Assembly: GCF_019656655.1 (NCBI RefSeq)
Contig: NZ_BPMV01000002.1
Coordinates: 62,001-126,000, forward strand
DNA: 64,000 nucleotides
Direction of reading: 5' to 3'
Source of the DNA: Tsukamurella sp. TY48
GTDB lineage: Bacteria > Actinomycetota > Actinomycetes > Mycobacteriales > Mycobacteriaceae
In this document: positions 1-4,240 of the stretch, piece after piece
How positions within the stretch are numbered: position 1 is the first letter of the stretch
Layout of the letters: each line of letters opens with the position of its first letter
The notes under the pieces: model-generated
Seen by the model: the letters and a program-made list of their open reading frames with translations, nothing else
Told to the model about the DNA's origin: nothing
Databases searched by the model: none
Position numbers and translations under genes: made by a program

Positions 1-1455
1 CCGATCGTCCAGATCGTCGGCAGCGAGCCCGAGGTAGTCGTCGAACAGGTGGAAATCGGAGAACACCGCCGCCGTGTGCTGGCGGAACCACTCGGTGTTG
101 TGCGGACCGATCGGCTCGCCTCCCACGAGCAGCATCCCGGTGCGCGGCGGATACAGGCCCGCGATCACCTTCGCCAGCGTCGACTTCCCGCTGCCGTTCC
201 CGCCGACCAGGAAGGTCACCTCACCCGGGCGCAGCGCCAAGTCGACCGGGCCGAGCCGGAAGCCGTGCCCATCGAGCGGAGGCCCAGGAGGCATCCCCGG
301 GCCCGGGTGCGACGGTGCGCCGCCCGGCATCGCCGCGCCGGGCGCGCCCTGCATCGCTGTTCCGGGCCCGCCCTGCATCGCTGTTCCGGGCCCGCCCGGG
401 GGATGCGGCGGCCGAACGCCGGGCGGCCCCGGCAGCGGCTCCGGCAGGTACTCGTAGCCCACCCCGCGCAGCTCGACGGTGGCGTCCGCGGCGAGCGGCC
501 GATCGTCGTAGGGCAGTGCGGATTCATCGCGCGGGGTCTCCAGCGACAGGTCCATGGCCCGGATCTTCGCCAGCGCCACATCACCACGCACCAGGTCCGG
601 GATGCGGTGCATGAGGCTCTGCATCGGCATCGACAGGAACGTGGTCACCAGGACGTAGCCGATCATCGTCTCCCGCGGCAGTTCCAGCGCCCGGGCCAGC
701 ACGAACAGGATCACCACCATGGTGCCGAGCTGCAGCACCTGGCCCAGTGCCTGCCCGCCCGCGAACCGAGTGCCCGCCGCTACGTGCCGCTGCCGCAGGC
801 CGGTCGCGGTGCCCACCAGCCGGCGGTCCAGGAAATCGGCGCGCCGGCCGCGGTGCAGCTTGAGCTCCTTGATGCCGCGGGTCACCTCGTGGAACGAGCC
901 GATCAGCGCATCGTCGAGCTCGCGGGCCCGGCGGTAGTGCTCACGCACCTTGCGCAGCACCGTCTCCACACAGGCGATGCCGATCAGCGTGCCCGCCACC
1001 GACACCGCGAACAGCGTGCCGGAGACCGTCGCCAGATAGGTGAGCGCGCCGATGATGGTGGCCAGATCGATGCACAGGCCCGGGATACCGGAGACCGCCA
1101 TCGACAGCGAGCGCACGTCCTCGGTGAGAGTGGCCAGCAGCCGGTGATCGCCCAGCCGCTCGATGTGCTCCAGCGGCGCCGCGAGTACCCGCTTCGACAG
1201 CTGCACCCGCAGCCGGTACACCGCCGCCTGCGCCAGGTGCAGCAGCACCAACTGCGAGGCGACGCCCGCCGTGACCACCACCGCGGCGGTCACGATGAAC
1301 TCGGACACCGTGACCGTGGGCATCGGCCCGGGAGCGACCAGGCCGTTGATCAGCGTGAGCAGATAGGCGTTCGCGCCGCCGGCGATCAGGCCCGCCACCA
1401 CCGCCGCGGCGATCGCCGCGGGGGAGATGGAGAACAGGAATCTCAGGAGCTTCAC
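1..1455 (-). CDS. Cyclic-peptide-type ABC exporter, permease-ATPase fusion (3' end outside window)
   Basis: Half-size ABC exporter with the membrane domain fused to the nucleotide-binding domain, resembling the SyrD/PvdE/YojI cyclic-peptide export family. The 485 visible codons start at GTG 1455, 11 bases after the polyketide synthase stop and behind GAGG. About six hydrophobic segments come first, then a Pro/Gly-rich linker, then Walker A (GGNGSGKST) and a Q-loop region reading AVFSDFHLFDDYLG, which is typical of this family. Walker B and the signature motif lie beyond the left edge. Third gene of a tight minus-strand operon, so it probably exports the product of the two genes before it. Odd: the linker holds a perfect 24-bp tandem repeat. 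The family is clear; the substrate is inferred from position only. Confidence 0.85.
   Translation of the reverse strand, partial: MKLLRFLFSISPAAIAAAVVAGLIAGGANAYLLTLINGLVAPGPMPTVTVSEFIVTAAVVVTAGVASQLVLLHLAQAAVYRLRVQLSKRVLAAPLEHIERLGDHRLLATLTEDVRSLSMAVSGIPGLCIDLATIIGALTYLATVSGTLFAVSVAGTLIGIACVETVLRKVREHYRRARELDDALIGSFHEVTRGIKELKLHRGRRADFLDRRLVGTATGLRQRHVAAGTRFAGGQALGQVLQLGTMVVILFVLARALELPRETMIGYVLVTTFLSMPMQSLMHRIPDLVRGDVALAKIRAMDLSLETPRDESALPYDDRPLAADATVELRGVGYEYLPEPLPGPPGVRPPHPPGGPGTAMQGGPGTAMQGAPGAAMPGGAPSHPGPGMPPGPPLDGHGFRLGPVDLALRPGEVTFLVGGNGSGKSTLAKVIAGLYPPRTGMLLVGGEPIGPHNTEWFRQHTAAVFSDFHLFDDYLGLAADDLDDR
345..392 (-). repeat. Perfect tandem repeat, 2 x 24 bp, in the exporter linker
   Basis: Two identical 24-bp units (345-368 and 369-392) encode GPGTAMQG twice in the ABC exporter. 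A third, degenerate unit (APGAAMPG) follows in the protein. The repeat lies in a Pro/Gly-rich linker between membrane and ATPase domains, so the unit number could vary by replication slippage without breaking the frame. Confidence 0.9.
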
Positions 1456-1465
1456 GGTGCGGTCC

Positions 1466-2644: not shown

Positions 2645-2674
2645 GGGGGGTACTCCTAGATGAGGCTGGGGCGA

Positions 2675-4240
2675 TCAGACGGTGCCGATGCCGGTGAAAC
2701 CCGCGACGACGTAGGAACCGGAGGTGCGCAGGGCCTTCGGCGAGAAGTGCTCGCGCAGGAAACCGTGTCCCTCGGCCTGGGCGGTCCGGGACTTCGAGAA
2801 CAGGAAGGTGCGCACCTGGTCGGGGAGCCGGTCGAAGAAGAAGCTGCGCGCCGGCAGCCATTCGACGCCGAACTTCGCCGCCTCCTCGGCCATCACCCGC
2901 TCGGTGGCGATGTTGGCGAAGCCGCTGCGCTGGTAGGGCAGCACGTGATGCACGCGGTGGCTGGACAGTCCGGCCGAGAGGAAGCAGTCCACGTAGCGGT
3001 TGCCCGAGATCTTCAGGTCGTAGGCCTGGTGCAGCTGGTTGACCGCCCAGTCCTCGGTATCGGGTTCGGGCAGCTCGTCGACATCGGTCTCGAAGTCATG
3101 GCTGGCGACCACCAGGAAGGTGCTCACCCACAGCACGGCGACGAACTGCGCGACCCACGCCCAAATGTCACCGAGGAACAGGAACAGGAAGAACTCGCCG
3201 ATCAGCAGCACGCGCATGCCGAAGGCGCCCACGAAGTGCGGGAGCGCGCCGCGCAACGAGCCGTACATGTCGGCGACGCCCACCTGCCGGGTCAGCTTGA
3301 CGATCTCGAACAATCGCGAGGTCATGCCCGTCGCGGTGTGGCCGAACTTGTGCAGGGTGTGGATCGGCACCCGGTACCACCGCGGGATGTCCATCATCAT
3401 GGTGAAGACGTTCTTCTTGATGTCCACCTCGCTCTGCGTGTGCGGGTGGTGCAGCAGCGCGTGACCGTCGGCGGTGACGAAGGACAGCGCGACGTAGTTG
3501 ATGTCGAAGGCGTTCACCAGGACCTTGTTCTTGCCCTTCTGCGCCCGGTGGATCGCGTAGTGTCCGAAGCCCGCCAGCGAGCTGCGGAGCACGACCATGG
3601 CGATCACGAACAGCGGCAAGGGCATCCACGCCGGTTCCGACAGCCGAGTGGCGATCACCGCGACATAGGCCACGGCCAGCGCGAGGGCGGCCACGTCGAA
3701 CCAGCGGTCCATCCGCGTGATCCGCGCCGCGAGCGCGGGATCGCGCAGCCGCTTCTTCACCTGATGCAGCAGATCGTCCGGATCGTCGAACCGGTAGCGC
3801 GGGGTATCGCGCCAACTGTCGAATCCGTCCTTGAAAAGGAACGCGGGGGCATTGTTCTTAGGATGCACATCTTCAATTCGTGCGTCCCGGTCGAGCGCGA
3901 ATCGTTCCAGCATCCGCTCGATCTTCTCGGGATCCTTGTGATACGACCCGATGATCGAGGTGATGTCCCGGTTCTTCGAGCGGCCGATGAAGAATTCTCC
4001 GCCCGGGTGTTTGTTGATCCATTCCGAGAGGTCGTAGGCGCGGCCTTTGTAAACCCATACATCGGACAACTGCGGTCCACCGCCCGGACCGGGTCCGCCG
4101 GGGCCGGGGCCGGGACGCGAGTCCGGATCCGGACGTGCACCGTCCGGACCTCCGGGTGGCTCCGGGCGGGCGCGGTGGAGATCGCGCGGGCCCGGATCGT
4201 GCGCGCCTTCCTGCGGCGGCACGGTGGGATTCTGAGTCAC
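2675..4240 (-). CDS. Cytochrome b5-fused fatty-acid desaturase/hydroxylase
   Basis: Membrane di-iron desaturase with its own electron carrier, 521 aa from GTG 4240. That start sits 7 bases after a perfect AGGAGG and replaces an upstream in-frame start at 4285. Residues 1-57 are a Pro/Gly-rich low-complexity tail. A cytochrome b5 domain follows, with heme ligands His78 (HPGG) and His101. The desaturase domain has three histidine boxes: H227xxxH231, H260xxxHH265 and H428xxHH432, between hydrophobic segments near 180-215, 340-360 and 362-380. First gene of the operon with the type III PKS and exporter, so it may desaturate or hydroxylate the acyl starter or the product. Substrate and regioselectivity are unknown. 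Confidence 0.9.
   Translation of the reverse strand: MTQNPTVPPQEGAHDPGPRDLHRARPEPPGGPDGARPDPDSRPGPGPGGPGPGGGPQLSDVWVYKGRAYDLSEWINKHPGGEFFIGRSKNRDITSIIGSYHKDPEKIERMLERFALDRDARIEDVHPKNNAPAFLFKDGFDSWRDTPRYRFDDPDDLLHQVKKRLRDPALAARITRMDRWFDVAALALAVAYVAVIATRLSEPAWMPLPLFVIAMVVLRSSLAGFGHYAIHRAQKGKNKVLVNAFDINYVALSFVTADGHALLHHPHTQSEVDIKKNVFTMMMDIPRWYRVPIHTLHKFGHTATGMTSRLFEIVKLTRQVGVADMYGSLRGALPHFVGAFGMRVLLIGEFFLFLFLGDIWAWVAQFVAVLWVSTFLVVASHDFETDVDELPEPDTEDWAVNQLHQAYDLKISGNRYVDCFLSAGLSSHRVHHVLPYQRSGFANIATERVMAEEAAKFGVEWLPARSFFFDRLPDQVRTFLFSKSRTAQAEGHGFLREHFSPKALRTSGSYVVAGFTGIGTV

What the first reader, a model, noticed from the sequence alone, without database searches (positions are those of the whole stretch)
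1..4240. Compact type III PKS / cytochrome b5-desaturase / cyclic-peptide-type exporter operon
Three genes with gaps of 30 and 10 bp encode a desaturase with its own cytochrome b5, a type III polyketide synthase with intact Cys-His-Asn and an ABC exporter of the SyrD/YojI class. Together they could make and export an unsaturated or hydroxylated alkylpyrone or alkylresorcinol. I know type III PKS loci with methylases or hydroxylases in actinobacteria, but not this trio. Gene identities are seen; the product is inferred.
Basis: partly seen in the sequence, partly recalled or inferred. Interest (0 to 1): 0.75.

Follow-up and report, generated by a model that had tools for sequence, protein, structure and literature searches.

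The report
Pks18-type lipid operon with exporter
A Tsukamurella chromosome carries a compact gene set that probably makes an unsaturated polyketide lipid, pumps it through the inner membrane and hands it to a lipid-carrier lipoprotein; it is the exporter-bearing relative of a little-understood operon of tuberculosis-type bacteria and points to a cargo for the orphan carrier LprF.

Summary
On the minus strand lie a cytochrome b5-desaturase (2675-4240), a type III PKS (1466-2644) and an ABC exporter starting at 1455, with gaps of 30 and 10 bp; the exporter ends 350 bp left of the window and scores above the TIGR01194 cut-off. The interpretation needs two corrections. (1) The pair is not new: it matches rv1371-rv1372 (pks18) of M. 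tuberculosis, where a sulfotransferase (rv1373) stands in the exporter's place; that operon was studied in 2026 (PMC13141999), product unknown. In 80 named loci lipoprotein, desaturase and PKS stay together (77; 3 cut by contig ends), although the lipoprotein gene changed orientation. The exporter follows in 62 of 80, a sulfotransferase in 17 (Mycobacterium). One Mycobacterium genome holds all five genes; in another the lipoprotein gene ends 4 bp before the desaturase. Best reading: synthesis, inner-membrane export and periplasmic carriage of a Pks18-type long-chain alpha-pyrone. Shown: gene content, synteny, catalytic residues. Inferred: product, transport direction, LprF's cargo. A new variant of a known kind, directly testable.

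The parts
1..1455 (-). ABC exporter, fused membrane and ATPase domains, TIGR01194 class; GTG start at 1455, continues 350 bp left of the window (G000:C2:61650-63455, 601 aa)
   Evidence: ATPase motif residues K424, S425, S512, G514, Q515, D535, E536, H569 unchanged in the 48 or 49 of 62 exporter loci whose aligned stretches cover them; Pro/Gly/His-rich linker of variable length in 12 aligned sequences
1466..2644 (-). Pks18-type type III polyketide synthase, 392 aa, triad C173-H311-N344
2675..4240 (-). cytochrome b5-fused membrane fatty-acid desaturase, 521 aa (counterpart of Rv1371)
3899..4063 (-). cytochrome b5 domain of the desaturase; H78 (HPGG) and H101 conserved, likely haem ligands
   Evidence: residues 60-114; 78 of the 78 loci that cover them
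2933..3634 (-). desaturase domain with histidine boxes H227xxxH231, H260xxxH264H265, H428xxH431H432
   Evidence: residues 203-436; all 79 or 80 loci that cover them
4241..4484 (.). divergent promoter region between desaturase and lipoprotein; blocks 4297-4309 (ACGCTAATnGATC) and 4397-4404 (TGCATACT) invariant among 7 Tsukamurella sequences apart from n
   Evidence: the sigma-70 consensus scan found no promoter
4485..5291 (+).
   Evidence: PF07161 153.9 bits; LprF 143.5, LprG 88.7, LppX 20.5 bits; profile of 21: LprF 310.5, LprG 165, LppX 80.5; synteny

Best explanation
The locus is a lipid synthesis-and-export module. The b5-desaturase unsaturates (or hydroxylates) a long-chain acyl group, drawing electrons through its fused cytochrome b5. 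The Pks18-type PKS extends that acyl-CoA with malonyl-CoA and cyclises it, most likely to a long-chain alpha-pyrone. The ABC exporter moves the amphiphile across the inner membrane. The divergently transcribed LprF-type lipoprotein takes it up in the periplasm and carries it towards the mycolic-acid outer membrane, as LppX does for PDIM. In the Mycobacterium branch that resembles M. tuberculosis the exporter gene was lost and a sulfotransferase follows the PKS, so there the product may be sulfated and leave by another route. Shown: gene content, domain families, catalytic residues, synteny. Inferred: the order of the chemical steps, the product, export direction, and LprF as carrier.
For: Desaturase and PKS are adjacent on one strand in 80 of 80 named loci, and a relative of the window's lipoprotein lies beside the desaturase (gap up to 607 bp, by match ends) in 77 of 80, the other three being cut by contig ends. 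Its orientation is divergent in 23 and co-directional in 54, with 3 changes on the desaturase tree, so adjacency outlived inversions. In a second, partly overlapping set of 251 genomes it lies within 1 kb in 32 of 33 desaturase genomes (the exception, G007, is a 4.7-kb contig). A profile of 21 of these lipoproteins fits LprF (310.5 bits) far better than LprG (165) or LppX (80.5). In L138 (a Mycobacterium) its stop is 4 bp before the desaturase ATG. Of the three PF07161 genes of this genome only this one is closest to LprF; the two others are closest to LprG. The exporter follows the PKS in 62 of 80 loci. Pks18 accepts C6-C20 acyl-CoA and gives pyrones (passages). Of the eight tunnel residues that review lists, five are identical in the window and three are serines (alignment). 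G070, which lost the desaturase and the start of the PKS, has no lipoprotein gene in the 11 kb read either. At E <= 1e-60 the desaturase is in 6 of 394 class genomes, all in the window's family.
Against: No biochemistry. TIGR01194 is named for cyclic peptide export. Here the lipoprotein has its own promoter region and is not in the same transcript. Second copies (desaturase-PKS-exporter) in G581, G732, G830 and one in G072 have no lipoprotein gene beside them (for G732 only 1.4 kb could be read before the contig end), though those genomes have one at their other copy. Two genomes (G078, G236) carry a related PKS (59%) with none of the partners in the 12 kb read. LprF was suggested to act in signalling with KdpD (PMC3850990, passage). 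No structure model of the desaturase could be obtained, so desaturase versus hydroxylase is open.
Confidence: 0.6

Rival explanations
1. The lipoprotein is a lasting but unrelated neighbour; the working unit is desaturase, PKS and exporter only, and the exporter releases the product directly.
For: Divergent transcription in the window; copies without the lipoprotein exist (L129, L133, L140, L141); LprF has been linked to KdpD signalling (passage).
Against: Adjacency in 77 of 80 named loci and 32 of 33 sampled genomes through 3 orientation changes, a 4-bp gap in L138, and an LprF- rather than LprG-type profile of 21 sequences.
Confidence: 0.2
2. The exporter serves another substrate (a peptide or drug), as its family name says, and only shares the operon.
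For: TIGR01194 match; in most Mycobacterium loci seen the desaturase and PKS persist without it.
Against: No peptide-synthesis gene recognised in the flanks looked at, about 10 kb on one side in the own genome and 17 kb of an annotated Tsukamurella record; exporter and desaturase occur in nearly the same genomes (the sets differ by G113 and G070 among 251); it starts 10 bp after the PKS.
Confidence: 0.15
3. The PKS makes an alkylresorcinol that becomes a respiratory polyketide quinone, as reported for pks10 of M. smegmatis.
For: Some mycobacterial type III PKS give alkylresorcinols (PMC5916927, passages).
Against: Closest to Pks18, a pyrone maker; no methyltransferase or oxidase gene in the operon; a quinone would not need an exporter and carrier (inference).
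Confidence: 0.1

Closest known systems
rv1371/rv1372(pks18)/rv1373 operon of M. tuberculosis and BCG (PMC13141999)
   Same: Desaturase followed by Pks18-type PKS in a co-transcribed, tightly spaced operon; lprF next upstream, to judge by the intergenic label lprF:Rv1371, marked as holding a repeat (PMC9363015, passages)
   Different: Third gene there is a sulfotransferase; here an ABC exporter. That paper does not mention LprF (0 occurrences) and did not identify the product
LppX with DrrABC and MmpL7 (PDIM export)
   Same: Polyketide lipid, inner-membrane transporter and a lipoprotein of the same family (PMC8427324, passages)
   Different: No MmpL in the operon; a single fused exporter; LprF-type, not LppX-type, lipoprotein; type III, not type I, PKS
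LprF (PDB 4qa8)
   Same: Best solved match of the lipoprotein, 143.5 bits, and of a profile of 21
   Different: LprF is called of yet-unknown function (PMC8427324); here it sits with a biosynthetic operon and an exporter
TIGR01194 exporters (SyrD, YojI; names recalled)
   Same: Domain layout, score over cut-off
   Different: Partner genes are lipid enzymes; no peptide synthetase recognised in the flanks looked at

Membership tests
Pks18-type long-chain alkylpyrone synthase | Cys-His-Asn triad | tested here: met
   C173, H311, N344 in the window and in 80 of 80 named loci
Pks18-type long-chain alkylpyrone synthase | Nearest solved type III PKS is Pks18 or close kin | tested here: met
   7cb3 (chalcone/stilbene synthase, origin not checked) 499 bits, 1ted (pks18) 465 bits, next enzyme 278
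Pks18-type long-chain alkylpyrone synthase | Small or hydrophobic residues lining the acyl tunnel (A52, S143, C205, N208, A209, H221, L266, L348 of Pks18) | tested here: inconclusive
   5 of 8 identical, 3 serines in the window (alignment); tunnel not modelled
Pks18-type long-chain alkylpyrone synthase | Makes alpha-pyrones from C6-C20 acyl-CoA | not testable with these tools
   needs enzyme assay
rv1371/2/3 operon | desaturase directly before Pks18-type PKS | tested here: met
   30-bp gap in the window
rv1371/2/3 operon | sulfotransferase as third gene | tested here: not met
   ABC exporter follows, then malate synthase G; so filed as a variant, not a member
LprF-type LppX_LprAFG lipoprotein | PF07161 over cut-off; closer to LprF than to LprG or LppX | tested here: met
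   153.9 bits, cut-off 24; 143.5 against 88.7 and 20.5 bits
LprF-type LppX_LprAFG lipoprotein | binds a lipid in its cavity | not testable with these tools
   no model or ligand data
cytochrome b5-fused membrane desaturase | b5 domain with two haem histidines, three histidine boxes (motif shapes recalled) | tested here: met
TIGR01194 exporter | score over curated cut-off, intact ATPase motifs | tested here: met
TIGR01194 exporter | transports a cyclic peptide, as the family name says | not testable with these tools
   no peptide-synthesis gene recognised in the flanks looked at; substrate needs experiment

The most novel reading that the evidence does not exclude
LprF-type lipoproteins are the dedicated periplasmic carriers of the Pks18 pathway lipid throughout the mycolic-acid bacteria. 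The ABC protein in this window is the ancestral inner-membrane exporter of that lipid, lost once in the Mycobacterium branch in which a sulfotransferase follows the PKS. The orphan carrier LprF, the orphan product of pks18 and the orphan desaturase Rv1371 would then be one pathway, hidden in M. tuberculosis by the lost exporter and a repeat between lprF and rv1371.
Probability: 0.42. Interest if true: 0.78.

Novelty: new variant of a known kind. Interest (0 to 1): 0.6.

Why it matters
The native product of the pks18 operon and the cargo of LprF are both open in the papers I saw. Conserved gene order says they belong together, and the exporter form in Tsukamurella, Nocardia and Gordonia lets the whole route be tested outside the tuberculosis group. 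It also suggests that the mycobacterial operon descends from a unit that had its own exporter, which would explain why that operon has none.

Tried and rejected
Rejected: an unknown trio (a described counterpart exists); simple one-step replacement of exporter by sulfotransferase (L139 has both, L138 has the exporter alone; on the enlarged tree 'has exporter' needs 1 change and 'has sulfotransferase' 2); glcB as part of the module (in 6 of 80 loci, all Tsukamurella). Exceptions followed: G003 seemed to lack the PKS, but the desaturase and the exporter end two contigs, so it is most likely an assembly gap; G070 has a PKS remnant (one TAG, start missing) beside an exporter that aligns end to end; G078 and G236 have a lone PKS beside a methyltransferase and a PRA isomerase gene. 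Led nowhere: sigma-70 scan; the desaturase search of plasmid records gave 2 hits, one of them a useful annotated Tsukamurella record; structure prediction (below). Rows left out: the genome-contig scan kept the best 80 of 93 relatives; L067 was dropped from the tree (short desaturase piece); the tree used 36 of the 80 named loci chosen by hand, 26 fetched loci and the window, and flagged L138 as a long branch whose place is unsure; of 31 desaturase places in 28 of 297 Mycobacterium genomes I inspected 24. In my notebook one orientation count is wrong; the right counts are 54 co-directional and 23 divergent.
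Full report
What is there. The window lies at G000:C2:62001-126000. Three minus-strand genes, desaturase 2675-4240, PKS 1466-2644 and exporter from 1455 leftwards, are separated by 30 and 10 bp. Reading 10 kb left of the window shows that the exporter ends after 601 codons and is followed by malate synthase G. A divergent gene at 4485-5291 encodes an LppX_LprAFG lipoprotein. A public T. tyrosinosolvens record is annotated with the same products in the same order.

Protein identities. The desaturase has a b5 domain and an FA_desaturase domain; its histidine boxes and the two b5 histidines do not vary in the 78-80 named loci that cover them. 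No NCBIfam family was matched, and the only solved sequences found at E <= 0.1 match its b5 domain. The PKS matches 7cb3 and Pks18 far above all other solved enzymes (499 and 465 bits, next 278), and its triad is intact. The exporter passes TIGR01194 and keeps its ATPase motifs; a Pro/Gly/His-rich linker of very variable length joins its two halves. The lipoprotein is closest to LprF, while the two other PF07161 proteins of this genome are closest to LprG. A profile of 21 lipoproteins from such loci also fits LprF best (310.5 bits; LprG 165, LppX 80.5).

Conservation in named genomes. One scan of genome contigs gave 93 relatives, of which the best 80 loci were kept: Tsukamurella, Nocardia, Gordonia, Williamsia, Mycobacterium, one Mycobacteriaceae MAG and two records whose names look wrong. 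Desaturase is beside PKS on the same strand in 80 of 80. The lipoprotein gene is beside the desaturase in 77 of 80; L067, L103 and L115 are cut by contig ends on that side. It is co-directional in 54 and divergent in 23. The exporter follows the PKS in 62, a sulfotransferase in 17, and in one (L094) the contig ends 84 bp after the PKS; all 17 are Mycobacterium (Pfam check of two). Malate synthase is beside the module in 6 loci, all Tsukamurella, so the neighbourhood changes while the module stays.

Conservation in sampled genomes. In 251 genomes of the family at E <= 1e-60, desaturase is in 33, PKS in 35, exporter in 33. 32 hold both desaturase and PKS. The exceptions are G003 (contig breaks), G070 (deletion) and G078 and G236 (lone PKS). 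The exporter set equals the desaturase set minus G113 (a Mycobacterium with two sulfotransferase genes instead) plus G070. A lipoprotein match (E <= 1e-18) lies within 1 kb of the desaturase in 32 of 33 genomes. These genomes fall into 6 of 31 genera and some are the same assemblies as the named loci, so they are not independent. In 394 genomes of the class only 6 have the desaturase at E <= 1e-60, all in the same family.

Mycobacterium. 28 of 297 genomes of the genus have the desaturase, at 31 places; I inspected 24 places. Nineteen have lipoprotein-desaturase-PKS-sulfotransferase; four have desaturase-PKS-exporter (L133, L138, L140, L141; only L138 has the lipoprotein beside it); one, L139, has lipoprotein, desaturase, PKS, exporter and sulfotransferase in a row, with the exporter's stop overlapping the start of the sulfotransferase reading frame. 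In L138 the lipoprotein stop is 4 bp from the desaturase start, and its best solved match is LprF (180 bits). G581, G732 and G830 carry both an exporter copy and a sulfotransferase copy.

History. On a desaturase tree of 79 named loci plus the window, the third gene needs 1 change and the lipoprotein's orientation 3. With the extra Mycobacterium loci (63 rows, partly chosen by hand; L138 flagged as a long branch), 'has exporter' needs 1 change and 'has sulfotransferase' 2. The exporter is most simply ancestral and lost once. How the sulfotransferase came is less clear: gained twice, or gained once and lost, and L081 ends before it could be seen. Roots were drawn at the midpoint only.

Known counterpart. 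In BCG the rv1371/2/3 genes are co-transcribed; complementing a BCG deletion with the M. tuberculosis genes changed SDS survival and macrophage infection, lipid features differed between strains, and no molecule was named (PMC13141999; parts 1-3 of 5 of the text read). The partners there are Pks18 and a glycolipid sulfotransferase. A 2009 study lists Rv1371 to Rv1376 among potential horizontally acquired genes (PMC3087520, one passage), and a 2018 paper calls the M. marinum pks18 orthologue mmar_2190 exclusive to pathogenic mycobacteria (PMC5916927, passage); the relatives in Nocardia, Gordonia, Williamsia and Tsukamurella widen that picture. A genome-wide study labels the stretch between lprF and Rv1371 as one intergenic region holding a repeat (PMC9363015, passages); that the repeat is IS6110 with Rv1369c-Rv1370c is recalled. 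I did not read an M. tuberculosis genome. LprF is described as of yet-unknown function (PMC8427324, passages) and as a possible partner of KdpD (PMC3850990, passages). No paper in the library held lprF together with pks18 or Rv1372 as whole words (the 3 papers listed all show 0 for lprF), and in the listing shown for (15 of 42) no paper joined 'type III polyketide synthase' with LppX, LprG or LprF. Most subscription papers were not available; the LprF structure paper was not found.

How it most likely works. Desaturation, then PKS extension and cyclisation to an alpha-pyrone, then ABC-driven crossing of the inner membrane, then LprF-type carriage. The first two steps rest on enzyme families, the last two on gene order and on what related lipoproteins do. 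The restriction, in the sets searched, to a family of mycolic-acid bacteria fits a product bound for the outer membrane, but does not prove it. The conserved blocks in the divergent promoter region are compatible with co-regulation; transcription was not tested.

Verdict.

Noticed in passing
window 5314-8311: Next to the lipoprotein gene lies an iron/siderophore-type ABC uptake set (Peripla_BP_2, ABC ATPase, FecCD permease), also present in the annotated T. tyrosinosolvens record.
   Followed up: partly
L124 (G070:C2:131000-142000): A decaying copy: lipoprotein, desaturase and the start of the PKS are not found, one TAG in the PKS remnant, exporter aligning end to end.
   Followed up: partly
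L125, L126 (G078, G236): Lone Pks18-type PKS (59% identity) beside a methyltransferase and a DUF1254/DUF1214 protein, and beside a PRA isomerase gene respectively; no desaturase, exporter or lipoprotein in the 12 kb read.
   Followed up: partly
L133, L140, L141, L129: Second copies of desaturase-PKS-exporter without a lipoprotein gene seen beside them, each in a genome with another copy that has one; L140 ends 1.4 kb before the desaturase.
   Followed up: partly
L146:3984-4948 (G667): The sulfotransferase match falls into three pieces in more than one frame, so the gene may be broken or the sequence faulty.
   Followed up: no
L053 (NZ_JNYV01000002.1): A record named Kitasatospora arboriphila carries a locus with the gene order of Williamsia muralis L064 and a near-identical desaturase; probably a mislabelled or contaminated assembly.
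   Followed up: no
L103 (CAJCHX010000011.1): A MAG named Acidobacteriaceae bacterium has the contig length (4652) of G007:C11, which is grouped in the window's own genus; the name looks wrong.
   Followed up: no
L136 (NZ_LR134450.1): Called plasmid 8 of T. tyrosinosolvens NCTC13231, but it carries glcB, a GuaB1-family gene and this module in the order seen on the window's contig.
   Followed up: no
G192:C20:9454-10038: The lipoprotein match of this genome reads with one in-frame TGA.
   Followed up: no
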